64,000 bases of DNA from Aurelia coerulea (taxonomy: Eukaryota > Cnidaria > Scyphozoa > Semaeostomeae > Ulmaridae): NCBI GenBank assembly GCA_039566865.1, contig CM076943.1, forward strand, positions 40,246,663 to 40,310,662, given 5' to 3'. Both the position numbers and the translations under genes were made by a program. Position 1 is the first letter of the stretch. Each line of letters opens with the position of its first letter. The notes beneath the pieces are model-generated. The model was not told the DNA's origin, ran no database searches, and was given only the letters and a program-made list of their open reading frames with translations. Shown one piece after another: positions 559 to 11,639 of this stretch.

Positions 559-653
559 GACTCCAGAGAAAACCCGGAGGAATTCCCGCAGAGTTTCCCG
601 AGAGGCGTGTGCAGCGGCATTTATTGGGCATATGTGACAATGACAACCGTTGG
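559..653 (+). CDS. Channel exon: pore helix and first half of selectivity filter
   Basis: The acceptor is a good TTTGCAG at 552-558. The exon encodes NPEEFPQSFPRGVCSGIYWA followed by YVTMTTVG and stops after two bases of a glycine codon at a GG|GTAAGA donor. The next exon supplies T and continues TAT GGA GAT, completing TVGYGD. The hydrophobic GIYWAYVTM run is the pore helix of potassium channels. Confidence 0.8.
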
Positions 654-3600
654 GTAAGACATTGTATTAATTTATTATATTGTCTGTAAGTTTTCAACCG
701 GTTGCACAAAAGCTGAATATTCAGAGGGGTTTGATCTCATTACCAAACAGAATGTTCTTGTTTGTTACCCAGCACTCTCTCTATATTTACTTGTTACATA
801 CAGACTATATTTTACTACAGGATGTCCCAAAAAAATTGTGCCCTGTTTGTCTGGAGATTGCGACAAAACGGCAAAAGATTGTCGCCAAACCTTTGCATGA
901 TGGTGCTCTTCAGATGTTCAATTAAAGTTTGCCACCATCCCCGTAAAAATCCGTTGAAAAATGATGGAGCTATGACCTTCAGAAGACCAAGTTTGCCTGG
1001 TGACTGAAACCAGCGGTCGGCCATTTTGTCTTACTATTTTGCAGTGATAGGTATCTTCACGTGAGGTAAGAAATAATTTCTGTGAGGTCAGAACTAGTGG
1101 AACTCTCCGAGGATTATCGGAATTTTCACGAGAGCTATGACATTGGAGGCTGCTGTTTCATTTTCAACCCATGAAGCTATTTATCGCTGCAAAATAGTTA
1201 GACAAAATGGCCGACCGCTGGTTTCAGTGATCGGGCAAATGTGGTCTCCTGAAGGTCGTAGCTCCATCATCTTTCGACGGCTTTTCATGGGGATGGTGGC
1301 AAACTTTAATTGAACATCTGAAGAGCACCACCATGCAAAAGTTTGGCGAAAATCTTTTGCCGTTCTGTCACAATCTTCAGACAAACGGGGCACAATTTTT
1401 TTGGGACACCCTGTATGTGTGCATAAATGCTTTTGCATTAAATCTTTAAAAGATGATTTAGCACCTGATTAAAACTGAAAATTCTTTGGATCTACAGGGT
1501 GTCCCAAAAAATTGTGCCCATTTGTCCGAAGATTGCGACAAAGCTGCAAAGGATTCTCGCCAAACTTTTAAATGATGGTGCTCTTCAGATGTTCAGTTAA
1601 AGTTTGCTACCATCCCCATGAAAATCCGTTGAAAAATGATGGAGCCATGACCTTCAGGAGACCAAATTTGGCAGATCACTGAAACCAGCAGTCGGCCATT
1701 TTGTCTTACTATTTTGCAGCGATAAATAGCTTCATGGATGGAAAATGAAACAGCAGCCTCCAATGTCATAGCCTTCGTGAAAATTCCGATTATCTTCAGA
1801 GAGTTCCACTATTTCTGACCTGACAGAAATTATTTCTTACCTCATGTCAAGATACTTATCACTGCAAGATAGTAAGACAAAATGGCCGACCGCTGGTTTC
1901 ATTCATCAGGGAGATTTGGTCTTATGAAGGTCATAGCTCCATCATTTTTCAACGGATATTTATGGGGATGGTAGCAAACTTTAATTGAACATCTGAAGAG
2001 CAACATCATGCAAACGTTTGGCGACAATCGTTTGCCGTTTTGTCACACTCTGCAAGCAAACGGGGCAAAAAAAATTTGGGACACCGTGTAAAAATGTGTT
2101 TTTGGCTGATTTTAAAACGGTATTAGGGAGCGGTCATTAAATATCTGCTATTTTTTGGGGTGGATGATATTTGGATGTGCTATGAAGAATTCTGCCATAA
2201 CTTTATGGAGCTATGAAGAAAATCAAGTTCATTTTACGGGGCCATAAAGATTTGCTGCAAAACTTGTTTTCTATTGCTTTTTCTCACTTGACACTTGCAA
2301 TTGCTTTTCTATTGATTTCCTTTCTTCCCTTTATCATTTCTAAGTAAGTTGGCTAACCAGTGCTAAGTTACATTTCTGAAATTACACTACTGGGCAAAAT
2401 TATCCAGCCACCCCTCATACAACTTACAAATGCATTTTTACAGTAGTCCAATGCAACTTATTTTAGCTAGTGTGTCACTCTCCATTGCTTCAGATTAATT
2501 TTTCATTTAGCTTCAAAAAATTGATCTGGTTTTGCAAAATCATGTGATTTTCTCGTGACATCATGATGTTGTTTATATGAAACCTGGAAATGTTAGTCAA
2601 GTCAGCAGCCATGTCTACCCCACGGAAGTGGTATTAAATGTACAATAATATCCAAAATACATATTTTAAGGTTTTTAGATGTGCTTTAGATGTGTTTGCA
2701 CGTTAGTTCTTGCAGAAACAATAGGCTCACATGTTTCTGTGAATTTTTGGTAGAATTCATAACATATAATTTGGTAAATTTTTCGACAAATGGAAAAATT
2801 GAAAAAGTGCGATGAGAGAGAACTTGCGACCTCCTGTATTCTAGGCAGTTGCTCCACCGACTGAGCTGTCTCTGCCACACTTGCTGTATAAATGTGGCTG
2901 AGATAGCTCAATCGGCAGAGCAACTGCCTAGAATGCAGGAGGTCGCGAGTTCGAAACTTGTTCTCGTCACACTTTCCATTTTTCGATTTGTCGAAAAATT
3001 TACCAAATTATTTGTTTCTGTGAGAATATATTCATAACAAAGAGTTCAGTTGTAGTGAAATATGAGTATAGATACAATCCTCCTCATGTAAGAAACTGTC
3101 CTGAGATCAGGCTGTAAAGTTTCTTACACGAGGGTAGCTGGTTTATGATGTCATCACAAATTTGTTGTTACTCGTGCCTATTAACAAAAGCGCTATGATG
3201 ACCTCCACTTTTGGACAAACGAGCCAATGAAAAATAAAACATGCAACTGGTCCTCTATCTATATTTAGCATGTTTCCCATTTTGAAACCTATTTGTAGCC
3301 AATTTTGAACAAAACAGATGGCACTAGAGCAAGCAAGCTCTCCTCCAGTTTGGCTTATGATGCACTCCTTTCGTGGACCTTACAATGTTTCTTATTTTCG
3401 TAGTTATGGAGATCTGACACCAAAATTGACACCTGCGCGCCTATTTGCGATGGTGTGGATGATTGTTGGATTGATCTCTTTATCCCTTCTGTCTGCCAAG
3501 CTCACAACTGCTTTGACTGTCCCTCAAGCAAAAGACACCAAATTATATGGTCAAGAGGTATATCTATTGAATTACTGTCCTTACGGCATTTACTTGGCAA

Positions 3601-6600
3601 ATAATATGTAGTTATGTACTCTGTCACATTTTTTGCAGGCCAGCAAGTCAAGTAATCTGCAGGTCAAACTCGAGAGCAAACATACGGGTCACCAATACAG
3701 CCAATGCCTCGATACAACAATCAACCTGTTCTGTTTGTTCTGCTTAATTGCTTCCAATAACTTCAGTATTCTACATATAGTAAATTTTATTCATATGAAG
3801 TCTTTTGATGCACTCAGTGTGTTGCTGATTAATCAGGCAAACATGGTGTGATGTCCAGTTCATACACATACAGTATAATAATAATAATCAATTTATTTAC
3901 AGTTGGTGTATACAGTTGTTGTGTTGGAGTATGTTTATTCAACTTATGGAATACGCCTGTTGATATACGAGAGGCCTCAACTCTCGGTTGCTTCAAAAAA
4001 CAATTGAAAACACACCTACTGGCTGATCAAAAACGTTAACTTCAAAACGCGACCCCCTGGAAGAACAGCAATATTAACAATTTAGATACTACATTGCCTT
4101 TGAAATTATTTTTGTTTGTTTATTTTAAAAGATTGTATATATGTATTATTAGATGATGAAGGGTTTATTTTTCGTGTATAAATATTTATTCCTATCTTAT
4201 CATATATGGACAAATATAAGGACTTGGGGTTTAACTATAGCACGGCACTAGGGTGAGGTCCCAGTGTGTTGAAGTTGCCCCCTTTGAACCAGCTTTATCC
4301 ATCATAGAATAGCACCGTTGATCATGGAACGTTCCTGAAAGCGTCTTTATATAAGTTGAATGACAAAGGAAGGTAAATAATGATGGTTAATCAGCCCTTG
4401 ATGAACTGAGAATTATCCATAAGTTGAATGAACATACTGTAACAGGCTAGTTCTTGGGGTTTGAGTTCCTGTAGCATTGCAAATCTATGTCATTTGGAGG
4501 TTGTTAGAACATTAGAAGTTAGATAGGTGATTGGGCTAAGGATGGCACAATGGAATGTTTCCGAAGATCCATTTCGTTCCATGGTAAATTGACAAATTAA
4601 ATCATTCAGAATTCTTTCAAACGCCATAGTTGAAGGGAACCGACATAGTTAAAGCTGGCCCGGGCCAAGTTAAAAATATAATCTACAGGGTGTCCTAAAA
4701 AACATGTGCGCTCTTTGAATGGCTTCTGCGGAGCAGCCATAAATCTAATGTTTCTGATTCTAAGATTATTGACAGAAGAGACTTCAAATTAAAGGTTGAC
4801 ACCGAGTTTGAGTAAATCTGATCACTTGTTGCTAATTTATGGAGCAAGAAAGCCAAAATTATTGGCTGCCTCAAAACCAGAGGATTCATTATTCTCCAGT
4901 GCGTTAAAATCAACGAAATTGATTGAAAAAAACATACCCAGCCCTGTTTTCTGATGTTCATAAGTGAGACAGATAGTCATACATTGAATTTTGTGACAAC
5001 CAAGAATACTGGACATATCTAGGATTGCTAAGAATGGAAATGTGCAACACAAGTGCTTCAGGCCATGTCATGCGTCCATCAGATATTCTGCTTCTGAAAA
5101 GTGATAAAATCGTTTTAAACCAACAGTATTGCGTTCAGCATGCTGCTTGGTCGATATTCTTGAAGTTTATGGTCATTGATTACTCCCAAATGCGTTTCCT
5201 GGCATAACTGTAAAGTTTGAGTTCATTTAATGTTAAAATTCAAGTTATAAGGTTAAGTATGGAGATAAAATCCTCTGGTTTTGAAGCAACCAGTGATTGT
5301 GACTTTCTTTCTCAATAAATCAGCAACCACTTGTCAGATTTACACAAACTCGGTGCCAAGTTCTAAGTTAAAATCTCTTCTATTCACAAATCTGAAAAAC
5401 AGGAATGTTAGATTTATGGCTCCTCCACAGTGGCCATTTAAACGGCGCACAAGTTTTTTGGGACACCCTGTATTGTATTCAACAACTTTGACGCCTGCTG
5501 GGTCATTGTGTGGCGAAGGAAACAATGGGTTGGTGGGCATTTCTTCAGCCTATTTATGGCAGCTTGTCGATATAGCTATGTCTATTCCATTTAAGGATTC
5601 CCTGGCATCTTTAGCGCAATTGTTTATCAGATTGAATCACTACGTTTTAGATTGCAGCCATTTACGACTCAGCTGCTCGCACAATTGCAATTCATCACAG
5701 TGCAAAAGTAAATATCAGTAAGTATTCCTCAAATTGTTTACTTGATTAATAATGCATGAGGTGTGGTAAAATTGTCATTCTTCGAGCTGTCGTATGCAGG
5801 CGTATCTATCAAGTAATCTTCTTGTCAAAATCAGAAAATTTACAGTTACTCGTAATCCTTTTTCTCTCCAAACACCGGGTATCCACAAAAATCAAATACA
5901 TTTCGTTGGGCCTAGCGATGAAAGTTTAGCTTTAACACTTGGGTAGTCATTTACAAAACATTCCTCAATAGATATCTTGAACACAGACACCTCGTTTGTG
6001 GATATGGGTGCTTTAATAGTTGAATGTTAATTTTGAAGTCCAAATTTGCGTCCACCTCTAAACCAAACCTTTGACCAAAATTAGCCTGAGCAATTTCCAA
6101 ATAAAAAAACTCCCACTAAAACTAATCAAGGACAAAGCCAGTTCGTTATTTTTGAAACTCTCTTGTCTGGTTATCAGCTTCAGCAGTATTTTGTCTTGTC
6201 ATTGTAGAAGCACTATATCGAACCATGAAAGATATTGCCGATTCACTGAAAAGACGCAAAGTACGATCAGCATTGGTCGATGTTGCATCAGCAGCTGCTC
6301 GACCTGACCTCTTCGTACACCCAGACATAGACGCAATTGACATAAAACATCCATTCTCATTTGGCTTCATCCTATCAAGAGCAAGAGACATGGCTAACGC
6401 CGCGAGTACATTCAAGGACTATATAAAGGTCGGTCAAGGAACAACACATATTACACACCTTGACACATATAACTGCTGGTGTCAAGGTAAGGGCAATACA
6501 TTGTTGCTAGTTATATTATCAAAACTCATTGCTGCTAGTTATATTACAGTAAAAACCCGCATATAAGAACCACCCACTTATAAGAACCTAAGGCCTAGAA

Positions 6601-9600
6601 TGTTCTAATTTCACCCCATTACAGAAGAACCTATTCATCCTGAAATTCAAGGAAGGTTCTTATCTAAAAAAGTTACATGTAGACTACTGGTTGGTAATAT
6701 GTGACAAGATTTTTTAAAGAAATTTAGCCAACTACTTAAGTAGATACAAAGCATATACAAACAATTCTTTGTATGAATGGATTTGATACAGATAAGGCTA
6801 GGTAGACAAGGTTGTTCTTTATAAAATTGTGTCATGATAGTGTGTATGTGAAAACGTTGTTTTCTTGTATTTGGCCTAAATTCCCAAAGATCTGTAATTA
6901 ATTCTTTTGATAAGAACCTATTTAAGAACCTTGCATCCTGTTTTCCAGAATAATATCATATGCATAAGAATCTAAACAGGGTGATTTCAAAATGCAAGGT
7001 TCTTATATGCGGGTTTTTACTGTATCCTATCAACAGCTAAAAGCATACTTCTTACATTTTGTTACAATCAGCACAAGCTCTCCAAAAACAGTTTGATCTA
7101 ATAAGGTCTTTCGGTGAAAACTCCATATGATGCATGTGACACAAAAATGTAGCATTGTAATAAGTATAATGATGGCTTTTTCTACTGGGTGTATCAGAAA
7201 AAACGAGTCACTTGAAAAGTGCCTCTGCCGTGGCGACTTGAACCTTGCAAACTTATGGCATCGATTTTTGTAATCCATAACCTTTAACTGACCTTTAGAT
7301 ATACAGTAAATCCCCGCATATAAGAACCTACTTTTTTGAGAACCAGGCTGAAATAGGTTCTTATTTTAAAGGTACAAAGACAAATTTAGACCTGATAACT
7401 AAACCTAAGCTTGCAAACAGCAGGGGAGGAGGTTCAAATTTTAACAGCCAACTGGGACAAAAATCAGCTTAATAACGACGATCAAGGATCAACTTTACTA
7501 CCCCTGCAATAAGAACATATTTTTCATCAAACTGAAACAGGTTCTTAATTACAAGGTGCATAAGTTAGGGAAAACAGCCTCTAAGTTCTTAATTTTGTAG
7601 GTTCCTATATGCGGGTATTTACTGTATTCCCCTTACCTATAATTACCAACAAAAAATATTTTTGACTCGAAGTTGCCCAAATTTGTTACCGGTTGACGAC
7701 AGAGAGTCCTAATTTTCTGATGCATCTCGATTCTTGAAAATTCCCAGAAAATTAATGTTTTGGTTGTTTTTGTTTGATTCTTCAAAACCATGTTTTAAAA
7801 GACTAGAAATAATGATTTCTAACCTCTCAGTGAATTGAGCGTTCTTGATAGCAAATTTTAGCTCAGGAAAATGCTAGTTTTTGACCATGCTTGAAGAGAT
7901 AGGCATCACTTTCCCAATTTTGGATTTGATAATCTCCCTCGGTACGGAATAGTTGGTTTCATGCTTGTAATTATGTTTCTCTTTCGGTTCCAAAAATCTG
8001 AGATTTCCCAACAAATCGTTTGCCTTACAACATAGACGAGCTTAAGATGCCATAAAAAGAGTGATGCAATGCGACACAAGGAAGTACGAAAGCCGTTGAT
8101 TCAACGGGAAACCAATGCAGAGCATGAACAGCTAATGATGGCCAACTAATGGAATCTTTTACAAAAATCATTAACGGTTTGTTGTGCACATTAGGTAGAA
8201 ATAAAGTTTGAGTTCATGGCGTTTAAATTGCCACCACAGAGGCATTTTGAAATTGGCCCGGTATCATTAACTTTAGGGCTCAGACCAACGTTACCTTGCC
8301 TGTAGGCATTGTTCCTTTAAGTTCCTTAAATTGTTCCTTAAATCCCCGCATATAAGAACCTAAAAAAATAAGAACCTACAGGCTGTTTTTCCTAACTTAT
8401 GCACCTTGTAATTATGAACCTGTTTCAGTTTGATGAAAAATATGTTCTTATAGCAGGGGTAGCAAAGTTGATTTTGGATTGTCAGTGTTAAGTTCATTTT
8501 TGTCCCAGTGGGCTTTTAATGTTTGAAGCTCCTCCCCTGCTGTTGCAAAGCTTAGCATTGGTTATTAGGTATATTATAACCTTGCAAAAACAAATAATAG
8601 GGCTGAAAATCATTGACGAAGGTTCTAAAATGGCCTACGCAAGGTACTCTTCAAATAAGAACCATTATACCTTAAAATTTGGCTTAGTACCTTTAAAATA
8701 AGAACCTATTTCAGCCTAGCTCTCAAAAAAGTAGGTTCTTATATGCGGGGATTTGATTTACTGTAACCCTCTGTCATTGCCCGGTCTAGAAATCTGAGTT
8801 ACTAGTGGCAATACTGTGCTGTTGAGCGCACCAAATTCAGTTTAGAGAATGTCAGCTTTTAAAACAACTCAAAAAGATTGCAAAAACTTATTGCATGAGT
8901 TCATGGCGTTTAAATTGCCACCGCAAAGGCATCTTGAAAGTGGCCCGTCTTTTCTGATACACCCGGTATATAATTGATAATGCCAGTTCACTTTTGGCCA
9001 TTGTGCGAAAATAAAACGGAAATGGAAAGCAAAATCCTATGCATTGCGGTCCTTAACCAAATCCCTGTAGACGTGTTTGATATTTGTGATTGGAACGCGA
9101 TGCACCTTAGTAAATATTTCCACGCCGCTTGTCTTCAGCTTCTTGTCTATCATATCATACGCTTTACAAATCTTACCTCACAAAGACCCCACATAAACCT
9201 AGTAAAACGTTATAATAGACCATTTCGCAATTTGGAAAAGGGACTGAGGAGAGCGCGGCCCATTCTGACAGCCTTGGCAACAAGTAGGAAATCTACAGGG
9301 AATCCCATCAGGTCGGCTAGGCCTAAACTGAGCCGTTTCAAAGTCGAAGGGAAATACCTGAAATAAAGTGGCTCAAATTGCACTCACAAATTGGAAGAAG
9401 GGATGACAAGACTGCTTAATAATCCAGAGAAAACACTTACTAACCTAGACAAGCATCGCATAACTCTTGAAAATTGCAAATAAACCGAGAATAACTCGAG
9501 TTTGGAGAGAGATGTGAGTGAGCCGCAAGCTGTACATTTTGCACTGCAGAAAAGAGGATTCCCTGGATTTCCCTGTTGCCAAGGCTGTCAGAATGGGCCG

Positions 9601-11286
9601 CGTTCTCCTCAGTCCCTTTCTCCAAATTGCGAAATGGTCTATTTCCCACGACATTTGATCTGGGATCTGTTACAGTAGCTCCCATTGAGTTTATGCAATA
9701 TTTTGTGCAGCGGAGGATTCAGTTTTGGTATACTATTGGCAATTGAAACCATCTAATTTGCCTTGCAGGTAAAGAAAGAGGCAGATCAATTACTCTCATC
9801 CATCAATGCACAATCCCCCATGTACCAATTAACCGTTGTCATTGTTATTTCGCTTCTTTTAATTGCTGTTGGCTGCTGCCAAAGAAGGTACAAATACAAA
9901 GTATTTCACGGTAAGTCTCGAAGAGTACTCTTTTTTAACACTTTCAATACAGTAAGTACCCGCAAATAAGAACCCCCCTTGTATAAGAAACAGGCCTCAT
10001 TTTCTTCAAAAAGGGCCCCTTTAATAACAAACAATTTTAGGTCTGAAATCTAAATGTTTCTTATTTTCAGGTTTGTCATAGTTTGTTCCTGAATGCCAAA
10101 AAATATTCCCATAAATGACGTAATATAATGTAGCATTACTGTAATATAATGTAGGATTCTCAAAACAGACTGAACATTCTCAATCTTCACATAGCAAGAG
10201 GTAACAAGGTAAACATGTAACATGTAAAGCAGTAATGTTCAATACACATGCATACGTGTTACTGTCATACACCTTCACTTGACTTGATTCCCTATCTTTA
10301 AGAAACTTTGACCCTGATCATGAAAAGGTCTCTTTAAATAAGAAACTTTCTGAGGCCTCGATGTAAAAAGTGGTTTCTTATTTGAAGGTACCCGCTGTAT
10401 ACGGGTCTCTTTGCAGCTTTTACTGAATTCACGTACCTTATCACGAGTATGGTAAATATCATTACCGTAGTGCAGATGGGGTCGCACAGTGATCCGGTAC
10501 AAAAGAAAGTTTGGAAGAAATGCCAAAACATAATTATGAAGTTTCAAAATCTGAATTTATTTCATGCCCATATTACCAAGCACACTCTGAAGGTTTATGA
10601 CACGCAAACATTTTTAAAGTGCACATTGGATTGCAAAGTAACTTATTTGTGAAGTTGGGCATAATTGTTTGATTTGTTTACGGAATAACGCTGGTTGGAC
10701 TGAATTTTCAAAGCAATATTTCTCTGCTTAGAAAGGTCCGAAAATTTTTGTTTCGATCTTGTTTCAATCCTCTAGTCGTGTACTTTCTTGCAATCTCAAC
10801 GTTGATTGGAAATATTGATATTTTCGTTCATTTTTATGTAATTCATAATGACGGAAATTTGCAAAATGCATATCTTAAAAAATCATTTTAAAAATTCAAC
10901 AGTTGAAATGTGAAAATTGCGGCAAAACGTATTTACCAAAAAAAATTACAAAATTAAAGCCACTATTCGTGCAAGTTTCTACCAAAGGGTTTGTTCTAAA
11001 TCGTACTCAAGAAAGATTTATGGCCATTCTTATTTTTGTGGTACAACGGAGATTTTGAGATTTTGTCAATGTTTTCTGCAATGAGAATATATCGACGCCT
11101 GCTAAAGCCCTCAAAACTGACTGAACTCCATCTCTTTGACATAGAGTCATGAACTTTAATCCTCAGAATGCTTTCCTTTTTGTTTTCATGCCTAAAATCA
11201 CTGTTTTCAAGCATCTTTATTTGTTATTTGTCACATCAGCAGAAAACGACCAAAAACGTGTTGTTTATGATAACTACCACGAATGA
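559..11286 (+). CDS. Potassium-type ionotropic glutamate receptor-like channel (5' truncated, multi-exon)
   Basis: Membrane channel gene entering from the left edge. Proposed exons: 559-653, 3404-3557, 3639-3687 (tentative), 5658-5717, 6208-6428, 9769-9910, 11243-11286; all junction phases agree. The translation gives a pore helix and filter (GIYWAYVTMTTVGYGDLTP), an inner helix ending SAKLTTALTV, a soluble segment (ALYRTMKDIADSLKRRK; then VRSALVDVASAAARPDLF; then HPFSFGFIL), a hydrophobic segment (YQLTVVIVISLLLIAVGCC) and a short basic tail. In ionotropic glutamate receptors the order is M1, re-entrant pore, M3, S2 lobe, M4. The TVGYGD filter is that of potassium-type members such as bacterial GluR0 and rotifer AvGluR1. 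S1 and M1 would lie left of the window. Odd points: one filter glycine codon is split by an intron, the tail has a possible frame break, and exon three is poorly supported. A two-TM potassium channel with an unrelated extracellular domain is the alternative. Confidence 0.72.
818..1413. mobile_element. TA-flanked MITE, family A, copy 1
   Basis: Ends CAGGATGTCCC and GGGACACCCTG, with TA on both sides (816-817, 1414-1415). The arms are long inverted copies of each other: the GACCAAGTTTGCCTGG block is mirrored near 1220. The TA target and the CAGGGTGTCCC end suggest the Tc1/mariner superfamily. No transposase remains. Confidence 0.85.
1495..2088. mobile_element. TA-flanked MITE, family A, copy 2
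   Basis: Starts CAGGGTGTCCCAAAA and ends GGGACACCGTG, flanked by TA (1493-1494, 2089-2090). It is the same family as 818-1413, only 80 bases downstream of it, with the same long inverted arms. Confidence 0.85.
2766..3011. repeat. Fold-back repeat carrying two tRNA-like modules head to head
   Basis: The left arm (2766-2880) and right arm (2893-3011) are imperfect inverted copies. The outer parts share TTTGGTAAATTTTTCGACAA and its complement; the inner parts are tRNA-like sequences in opposite orientation. The spacer is only about 12 bases. Confidence 0.75.
2897..2969 (+). tRNA. tRNA-like/tRNA-derived sequence (anticodon loop reads AGA; probably not functional)
   Basis: Box A (TAGCTCAATCGG) and box B (GTTCGAAAC) are intact, and a cloverleaf can be drawn with one acceptor mismatch. 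The loop CTAGAAT puts AGA (serine) at the anticodon, but the long variable arm of serine tRNAs is missing and the T-stem is imperfect. It sits in a fold-back repeat with a degraded partner at about 2815-2880 on the minus strand. I read it as a tRNA-derived repeat, not a decoding tRNA. Confidence 0.5.
3404..3557 (+). CDS. Channel exon: filter end and inner (M3-like) helix
   Basis: Follows a TTTTCGTAG acceptor. It encodes YGDLTPKLTPARLF, then the membrane helix AMVWMIVGLISLSLLSAKL, then TTALTVPQAKDTKLYGQE, and ends in phase 0 at GAG|GTATAT. The SAKLTTALTV end resembles the TATLTSALTV seen after the inner helix in bacterial substrate-binding-domain channels, and sits where SYTANLAAF lies in animal glutamate receptors. 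Confidence 0.8.
3639..3687 (+). CDS. Tentative small channel exon
   Basis: A strong acceptor (TTTTTTGCAG) opens a reading frame in the required phase 0 (ASKSSNLQVKLESKHT). The only early phase-1 donor is a weak GG|GTCACC. It bridges the neighbouring exons in phase but has no recognisable motif; another exon between 3558 and 5657 may be the true one. Confidence 0.3.
3848..4150 (+). pseudogene. LINE ORF2 C-terminal remnant
   Basis: The reading frame ends with LWNTPVDIREASTLGCFKKQ then LKTHLL. This is the 'LWNSLP..IR.A.SL..FK..LKTHLF' ending of CR1/L2-type non-LTR retrotransposon polyproteins. It lies in an intron of the channel gene with AT-rich DNA after the stop. No reverse transcriptase core remains. 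Confidence 0.6.
4686..5470. mobile_element. TA-flanked MITE, family B, copy 1
   Basis: Ends CAGGGTGTCCTAAAAAAC and TTTTTTGGGACACCCTG, between TA dinucleotides (4684-4685, 5471-5472). A second copy is at 52686-53491. It ends 187 bases before channel exon 5658-5717. Confidence 0.85.
5658..5717 (+). CDS. Channel exon: start of S2-like segment
   Basis: A 60-base exon between ATTGCAG and a strong donor (CA|GTAAGT). In the only frame that fits the next exon it reads IYDSAARTIAIHHSAKVNI and ends with one base that completes a lysine codon with AA of exon 6208-6428. The composition resembles the start of the S2 lobe, but there is no diagnostic residue. Confidence 0.5.
6208..6428 (+). CDS. Channel exon: S2 ligand-binding-like segment
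   Basis: Acceptor TTGTCATTGTAG. It encodes ALYRTMKDIADSLKRRK, VRSALVDVASAAARPDLF and HPFSFGFILSRARDMANAAS, then TFKDYIK. This matches the S2 pattern of a helix, 'G-x-V-x-A-L-V-D', and a strand ending in a Y/F-G-x-x-L motif. The phase-0 donor AAG|GTCGGT is weak; a stronger GTAAGG donor at 6486 would shift the frame of the next exon. Confidence 0.68.
6547..7022. mobile_element. pogo/Tigger-like MITE (CAGTAAAAACCCGCATATAAG ends)
   Basis: Terminal inverted repeats begin CAGTAAAAACCCGC and end GCGGGTTTTTACTG, flanked by TA (6545-6546, 7023-7024). The ends carry repeated ATAAGAACC blocks. CAGT...CCC ends with a TA duplication are typical of pogo/Tigger relatives. Confidence 0.8.
7304..7624. mobile_element. 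pogo-like MITE nested in family F element
   Basis: Begins CAGTAAATCCCCGCATATAA and ends in its inverse GCGGGTATTTACTG, flanked by TA (7302-7303, 7625-7626). Confidence 0.8.
8341..8763. mobile_element. pogo-like MITE, opposite orientation, left end degraded
   Basis: The left end keeps AATCCCCGCATATAAGAACC but lacks CAGT. The right end is intact (GCGGGGATTTGATTTACTG, then TA). Internal blocks are the inverse of those in 7304-7624. Confidence 0.7.
9214..9643. mobile_element. MITE with AATAGACCATTTCGCAATTT ends
   Basis: About 90 bases at each end are inverted copies, including a shared GACAGCCTTGGCAAC block and its complement. It lies in the intron just before the M4 exon. No clear target duplication. 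Confidence 0.7.
9769..9910 (+). CDS. Channel exon: last transmembrane helix (M4-like)
   Basis: Acceptor CCTTGCAG, donor CACG|GTAAGT. It encodes VKKEADQLLSSINAQSPM, the hydrophobic YQLTVVIVISLLLIAVGCC and a positive cytoplasmic edge QRRYKYKVFH. A membrane helix after the soluble segment is expected of eukaryotic glutamate receptors and is absent from bacterial GluR0. A MITE begins 40 bases after the donor. Confidence 0.75.
9950..10397. mobile_element. pogo-like MITE just after the M4 exon donor
   Basis: Starts CAGTAAGTACCCGCAAATAAG and ends GGTACCCGCTG between TA pairs (9948-9949, 10398-10399). It carries subterminal AAATAAGAAAC-type blocks like its relatives. Confidence 0.75.
10400..11242. 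other. Intronic DNA, nothing recognised
   Basis: AT-rich intron between the last two channel exons. No repeat ends or coding pattern that I can support. Confidence 0.3.
11243..11286 (+). CDS. Channel last exon: short C-terminal tail with stop
   Basis: After the CATCAGCAG acceptor, the required phase gives ENDQKRVVYDNYHE and a TGA at 11284-11286. This makes a short polar tail. The stop overlaps the start of a longer open frame (11283-11639) that looks coding, so this stop may reflect a one-base loss or an assembly error. Confidence 0.55.
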
Positions 11287-11639
11287 GAGACTTGAAGACT
11301 TTGAATGAAATGCGAGGAATGCGGGAGAGAGCCGCTGTTCCAGAGCCGAATTTTGCTGGAAGGAGCAATGAGGTCAATGAGACTATTTCTTACGCCACGG
11401 AAGAAGACGAAATTGACATGATCCAACCGCTTCCGTCAATGGTCGACTTCTGGTCAAGGCACCATCAAATTGCATTACAAGATCAACAAAAGCTGCACCA
11501 ACTAAAGAAGAACATGGACCCTTTCCCAAAAGACATTTCTAGCCAAAGTGGCCAAGACGTTGTAAATATGGACATTAATGGAAGGAGACGAGGTAGTGGC
11601 AGGAGACCAGGTGATGGCAGGAACGGGGTGGTGGCATAG
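11283..11639 (+). CDS. Possible extended cytoplasmic tail of the channel, or unrelated ORF
   Basis: A 118-codon open frame directly after the channel tail, in another frame. It is hydrophilic and acidic/polar (for example ISYATEEDEIDMIQPLPS and WSRHHQIALQDQQKLHQL) and ends in a Gly/Arg-rich stretch. Its non-repetitive composition resembles an intracellular tail rather than chance DNA. A single extra base near 11283, or a different acceptor such as ATGAGAG|ACTTG, would join it to the channel. I recognise no domain. Confidence 0.35.
   Translation: MRDLKTLNEMRGMRERAAVPEPNFAGRSNEVNETISYATEEDEIDMIQPLPSMVDFWSRHHQIALQDQQKLHQLKKNMDPFPKDISSQSGQDVVNMDINGRRRGSGRRPGDGRNGVVA

What the first reader, a model, noticed from the sequence alone, without database searches (positions are those of the whole stretch)
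559..11286. Potassium-type ionotropic glutamate receptor-like gene in an animal genome
The exons join in phase to give a TVGYGD potassium filter, an inner helix ending SAKLTTALTV, an S2-like lobe with SALVD, and a further membrane helix. Known potassium-selective glutamate receptors are bacterial GluR0 and rotifer AvGluR1; animal receptors usually lost TVGYGD. A native cnidarian or similar copy would be a ligand-gated, inhibitory, potassium-conducting receptor of ancestral type. The S1 half is not in the window, so the receptor assignment is partly inferred.
Basis: partly seen in the sequence, partly recalled or inferred. Interest (0 to 1): 0.82.

Follow-up and report, generated by a model that had tools for sequence, protein, structure and literature searches.

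The report
Decayed copy of animal potassium receptor family
The window holds a broken copy of a receptor gene with a potassium-channel pore, from a family of potassium-type glutamate-receptor relatives that turns out to occur across corals, anemones, jellyfish, hydroids and some worm-like animals and not only in bacteria and a rotifer.

Summary
The exons are real: potassium filter, inner helix, S2-like lobe, a further membrane helix. The missing S1 half lies just upstream of the window but is broken, M1 is missing, and the S2 exon has a frameshifting difference near its end, so this copy is most likely a pseudogene. A sister copy at C1:25.33 Mb reads open through S1-M1-pore-M2-S2-M3; I count 38 pore-exon places in this genome. 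Relatives occur in anthozoans, Hydra, Hydractinia, Rhopilema, annelids, Lingula and hemichordates. Models of two relatives match the bacterial potassium receptor GluR0 best, tied with bacterial amino-acid-binding proteins; profiles align with GluR0-like proteins from S1 to S2 (E 7e-48). The filter is kept; the amino-acid-binding arginine is not, so glutamate is an unlikely ligand. Some members carry EGF, CUB-Ig or FN3 domains. My searches found no paper on this animal family, but key papers were not held. Potassium conduction and gating are inferred.

The parts
559..653 (+). pore-helix exon, ends inside the filter (TTVG|)
   Evidence: sequence; AG/GTAAGA; homologous exon in sister copies
3404..3557 (+). 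rest of the filter (YGD) and inner helix M2, ending SAKLTTALTV...LYGQE
   Evidence: Ion_trans_2; sister exons listed at 36-77% identity
5651..5717 (+). first S2 exon (IAAIYDSAARTIAIHHSAKVN)
   Evidence: same exon in C1:25.33 Mb and C20 copies
6208..6486 (+). second S2 exon with SALVD; family donor after 6486; frameshifting length difference against five sister copies between about 6429 and the donor
   Evidence: dN/dS of this exon against sisters 0.13-0.56 where it could be computed
9769..9910 (+). exon of the membrane helix after S2 (place of eukaryotic iGluR M4) and basic tail
   Evidence: homologous exon in sister copies; same place in P0249
   Evidence: AG acceptor and stop only; homology not established; an alternative frame is open to 11639

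Best explanation
The feature is the 3' half of a decayed copy (pseudogene) of a multi-copy animal gene family whose intact members are GluR0-type ionotropic receptors. Their chain is: extracellular ligand-binding lobe S1, helix M1, a re-entrant pore loop with the potassium filter TTVGYGD, inner helix M2, lobe S2, one more helix, cytoplasmic tail. Intact members probably work as tetramers: a ligand closes the clam-shell formed by S1 and S2, this pulls M2 open, and potassium leaves the cell, so the response would be inhibitory. Shown here by computation: order of parts, filter, predicted clam-shell fold of two members, conserved S2 aspartate, missing S1 arginine, lesions of the window copy in the assembly as held. 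Inferred: tetramer, gating, potassium selectivity, inhibitory role. The ligand is probably not a plain alpha-amino acid; in members with EGF, CUB-Ig or FN3 domains it may be larger or matrix-bound.
Against: The window exons are mostly open and family-level dN/dS is low, also for window pairs (0.19 and 0.33 over the joined exons; dS is near saturation for C20 pairs), so decay must be recent or partial. No transcripts, reads or currents of this species were seen. By sequence the S1-S2 part gives no Pfam ligand-domain hit in the animal members scanned, and the 60 PDB rows shown of 449 were potassium-channel pores. S1 alone against bacterial S1 is weak (20%, P 2e-4). The window protein itself finds its best animal relative at only 36% over 59% of its length (only proteins of 0.55-1.75 times its length were candidates).
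Confidence: 0.84

Rival explanations
1. The window gene is still functional: an alternative upstream exon supplies S1 and M1, or it makes a short modulatory subunit.
For: Window exons remain mostly open; splice sites good at most junctions; dN/dS to the C20 copy 0.19.
Against: Tblastn with four S1+M1 exons and an M1 query finds in 30 kb upstream plus window only the two S1 pieces at E below 0.01, besides the pore exon; the frameshift before the family donor puts M3 out of frame.
Confidence: 0.1
2. It is an ordinary potassium channel (Kv or KcsA kind) with an unrelated outer domain.
For: Best PDB sequence matches are TOK1, KcsA and Kv pores; several members are named 'Potassium voltage-gated channel'.
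Against: S2 homology without the pore; colinear profile match through S1 and S2 with GluR0-like proteins; iGluR and GluR0 fold in two models; a helix after S2; no voltage sensor in the chains read.
Confidence: 0.03
3. The apparent lesions are assembly errors in one intact gene.
For: The assembly is used as held; no reads could be checked; near-identical copies elsewhere could confuse assembly.
Against: Several lesions of different kinds in two exons, one of them an insertion of about 0.6 kb; the window copy is well diverged from its nearest compared sister (69% protein identity to the C1:25.33 Mb copy), so mixing with near-copies is unlikely.
Confidence: 0.06
4. On origin: the animal family came from a bacterial GluR0-like gene by one transfer into an early animal, instead of descent from the ancestral iGluR.
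For: Sequence and ligand-domain fold are nearest to bacterial GluR0-like proteins among what was compared; all 45 animal rows are one side of a branch from 18 bacterial-type rows (SH-aLRT 100).
Against: An extra helix after S2 as in eukaryotic iGluRs; the tree held no eukaryotic iGluR or AvGluR1, so it cannot decide.
Confidence: 0.35

Closest known systems
GluR0 (bacterial potassium-selective glutamate receptor, Synechocystis and Nostoc)
   Same: S1-M1-pore-M2-S2 order, TVGYG filter, clam-shell domain (first in the fold lists, tied with binding proteins), S2 aspartate
   Different: one more helix after S2, introns, added EGF, CUB-Ig or FN3 domains in some members, S1 arginine missing (103 of 105 bacterial-type rows have it; at most 8 of 53 animal rows have Arg at any column of 128-149)
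AvGluR1 (rotifer Adineta vaga)
   Different: AvGluR1 is described as having the architecture of eukaryotic iGluRs (passage, PMC12332018) and amino-acid agonists (passage, PMC12226733); P0129 has no room for an amino-terminal domain before S1, and the family lacks the arginine; direct sequence comparison was not made
AMPA/kainate/NMDA/delta receptors
   Same: ligand domain, pore and helix after S2 in the same arrangement
   Different: potassium filter kept; FTA-TT-L inner-helix pattern where iGluRs have SYTANLAA; 11-17% identity in Foldseek rows
Insect ionotropic receptors (IRs)
   Same: iGluR relatives that often lost the glutamate-binding arginine (recalled, not tested here)
   Different: IRs have no potassium filter (recalled)

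Membership tests
GluR0-type (potassium-filter) iGluR | TVGYG filter in the pore loop | tested here: met
   window; 52 of 53 family rows TTVGYGD, one with F for Y
GluR0-type (potassium-filter) iGluR | S1 before and S2 after an M1-pore-M2 module, in the window copy | tested here: not met
   S1 broken and M1 missing upstream
GluR0-type (potassium-filter) iGluR | S1 before and S2 after an M1-pore-M2 module, in intact sister copies and relatives | tested here: met
   C1:25.33 Mb copy; P0249 in one chain; hhalign colinear
GluR0-type (potassium-filter) iGluR | type II periplasmic-binding (clam-shell) fold of S1+S2 | tested here: met
GluR0-type (potassium-filter) iGluR | S1 arginine for the alpha-carboxylate of an amino acid | tested here: not met
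   at most 8 of 53 Arg at any column 128-149, against 103 of 105 in the bacterial-type set; the register in S1 is not certain
GluR0-type (potassium-filter) iGluR | S2 aspartate for the alpha-amine | tested here: met
   52 of 53 D, 1 E; D of SALVD in the window; 102 of 105 D in the bacterial-type set
GluR0-type (potassium-filter) iGluR | glutamate-gated potassium current | not testable with these tools
   needs expression and recording
Classical animal iGluR (AKDF, NMDA, epsilon) | helix after S2 and cytoplasmic tail | tested here: met
   window 9769-9910; P0129 helix 423-454
Classical animal iGluR (AKDF, NMDA, epsilon) | amino-terminal clam-shell domain (ATD) before S1 | tested here: not met
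   P0129 S1 begins near residue 55; no ATD model listed for 13 relatives scanned
Classical animal iGluR (AKDF, NMDA, epsilon) | Pfam Lig_chan over cut-off | tested here: inconclusive
   window 22.7 bits, under 30.8; P0129 35.3 and P0249 41.4 over it, P0143 28.9 under it
Kv-type potassium channel | voltage-sensor helices before the pore | tested here: not met
   C1:25.33 Mb copy and P0249 have the ligand lobe and one helix before the pore

The most novel reading that the evidence does not exclude
Eumetazoans inherited a whole class of potassium-selective, ligand-gated (hence inhibitory) iGluR relatives, kept and expanded in cnidarians, kept in annelids, brachiopods and hemichordates, gated by ligands other than plain amino acids and often bearing EGF, CUB-Ig or FN3 modules; AvGluR1 is not a lone relic but a hint of this class.
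Probability: 0.6. Interest if true: 0.86.

Novelty: new variant of a known kind. Interest (0 to 1): 0.72.

Why it matters
The passages I saw name GluR0 in bacteria and AvGluR1 in a rotifer as the iGluRs with a potassium filter (PMC12332018; PMC12226733; PMC3483616). A family found in many cnidarian and several bilaterian lineages, with intact chains in laboratory species such as Nematostella and Hydra, makes the hypothesis that glutamate receptors arose from potassium channels directly testable in animals. It also suggests a class of inhibitory receptors that work without chloride and whose ligand is open.

Tried and rejected
Ordinary potassium channel: rejected (S2 homology without the pore, fold). 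Contamination from bacteria: rejected, because of introns, many places in the genome and relatives in many animals. A second S1 or M1 exon in 30 kb upstream plus window: none at E below 0.01 by tblastn (a short piece of the S1 start, E 1.2, lies before the insertion). CUB, Ig, EGF or FN3 exons upstream of the window copy (30 kb), the C1:25.33 Mb copy (2.9 kb) or the C20 copy (about 6 kb): none by tblastn with N-terminal parts of nine relatives; the only hits were to the S1 start. Identifying the species by COX1 failed: no match in the assembly. Whether the frame 11289-11639 is a real last exon: not settled, the genome search did not complete. A count of pore exons by DNA pattern did not complete, so 38 is my reading of the rows (29 places, window included; that list was cut off; 9 more). 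P0249's EGF part folded poorly (pLDDT under 50).

My models of the C1:25.33 Mb and C20 copies used were joined wrongly or cut short at the S2-M3 join (about 19 residues left out in the former); the correct join was found later. One of 53 family rows was dropped for lack of the motif (52 used). The 105 'bacterial-type' rows are rows other than the two octocoral ones, over 330 residues long and with the motif; those with names are bacterial, many have none.

Full report
What is in the window. Joined as read, they give 241 open codons; 0 of 20,000 random joins of the first five lengths from window 12000-63000 were open. Pfam sees an ion-channel pore (Ion_trans_2, 52 bits) and a sub-threshold Lig_chan (22.7 against 30.8), and lists no ligand-domain model. 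The window lies at C1:40246663-40310662 of a 574-Mb animal assembly of 294 contigs.

The copy is broken. I fetched 30 kb upstream. Comparison of open frames with sister copies showed the S1+M1 exon directly upstream of the window. Against the C1:13.08 Mb copy the window copy has an insertion of about 0.6 kb, a frameshifting length difference, and no M1 segment. Tblastn with four S1+M1 exons finds, at E below 0.01, only the two S1 pieces (C1:40246214-40246408 and 40246417-40246518), and no M1. In five sister copies the S2 exon ends at a shared donor; the window copy has a frameshifting difference before that donor, and with that donor M3 falls out of frame. Over the joined exons dN/dS is 0.13 (C1:25.33 Mb against C20), 0.19 (window against C20) and 0.33 (window against C1:25.33 Mb), with dS near saturation in the C20 pairs; decay is therefore recent or partial.

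Intact copies. The C1:25.33 Mb copy joins over six exons with GT-AG ends and matching phases into 396 open codons: S1, M1, pore, M2, S2, M3; its first and last exons were not found. The C2 copy has EGF-like exons, the nearer of which fits the S1 exon in phase (by eye from the sequence). From the listed rows I count 38 places with a pore exon, the window included: 29 and 9 more. In 6 of 28 places compared, the S2 exon carries in-frame stops, so other copies are decayed too. Six copies on C1, 0.28-0.95 Mb apart, are identical over the 68 S2 codons compared.

Relatives. With the window protein the best animal hits were Xenia and Dendronephthya proteins, the former at 36% over 59% of the query, followed by bacterial-type GluR0-like proteins (533 of 1,711 candidates pass, 120 listed). 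With the C2 protein 386 of 4,840 candidates pass, 120 listed: all that bear an organism's name are cnidarian (among them Nematostella, Actinia, Stylophora, Pocillopora, Porites, Montipora, Acropora, Xenia, Dendronephthya, Rhopilema, Hydra, Hydractinia) except the annelid Dimorphilus. With the Dimorphilus protein 542 of 6,918 pass, 120 listed, adding Owenia, Lingula, Saccoglossus, Glandiceps and Ptychodera. Most are called 'uncharacterized', 'hypothetical' or some potassium channel; one is called Cubilin. CUB-Ig, FN3 and EGF fusions are seen by Pfam. P0249, an intron-free 731-aa protein on a 3,115-base JGI contig, has five EGF domains and the core in one chain and matches the C2 copy exon by exon; that is cDNA-like evidence that these exons belong together, though from a relative and not from the window's species.

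Key residues. Filter TTVGYGD in 52 of 53 rows, the other TTVGFGD; S2 Asp in 52 of 53, the other Glu. The S1 Arg present in 103 of 105 bacterial-type rows has no conserved counterpart: at most 8 of 53 Arg at any of columns 128-149. The S1 register is not certain. So a potassium pore is likely, and an amino-acid ligand held by the usual arginine is unlikely; which residue holds which part of glutamate is recalled knowledge.

Tree. Quick tree of 63 rows (45 animal, 18 bacterial-type): all animal rows form one side of a branch (SH-aLRT 100); annelid, brachiopod and hemichordate rows group (97); window, C1:25.33 Mb and C20 copies group with cnidarian CUB-Ig and FN3 rows (92). One row (P0007) has a very long branch. 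No eukaryotic iGluR was in the tree.

Literature. Listings. Passages found by term: PMC12226733, PMC12332018, PMC3483616, PMC6307864 (no GluR0, potassium or TVGYG in its text), PMC6259924. None of these passages or listed titles describes such an animal family. Janovjak 2011 and a review that I tried by a recalled DOI were not held, and subscription journals are mostly missing, so 'not described' is limited to these searches.

Verdict. The copy itself is probably dead; the family is the finding.

Noticed in passing
G000 C1:16.79-17.52 Mb and C1:22.55-26.55 Mb: Near-identical gene copies of the family at roughly 160-950 kb spacing; six are identical over the 68 S2 codons compared. Recent large duplications or assembly duplicates.
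   Followed up: partly
window 2816-2995: Two tRNA-like stretches in opposite orientation (ARAGORN calls tRNA-Ser at 2897-2970) inside the intron that splits the filter; looks like an inverted pair of tRNA-derived repeats.
   Followed up: no
window 821-1420, 1497-2090, 4687-5470: Repeats with the same GGGTGTCCCAAAA-like ends and inverted halves, as in short inverted-repeat transposons (seen by eye).
   Followed up: no
window 6550-8760 (several places): Repeated 'CCGCATATAAGAACC' elements in both orientations in introns (seen by eye).
   Followed up: no
L001-L003 (C13:18.67-18.77 Mb), L005, L007: The genome also has ordinary iGluR pores (QQGPDYTPR, TANLAAFF) and long-exon receptors that look NMDA-like to me.
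   Followed up: no
P0252, P0255, P0256, P0263, P0265, P0270, P0271: A CUB-Ig form of the potassium-type receptor in anthozoans, a hydroid and a scyphozoan; CUB proteins (Neto, SOL) are separate helper subunits of iGluRs in bilaterians (passage, PMC6259924).
   Followed up: partly
window 653/3404 and the sister copies read: An intron splits the selectivity filter itself (TTVG|YGD) in the copies of this genome that were read.
   Followed up: partly
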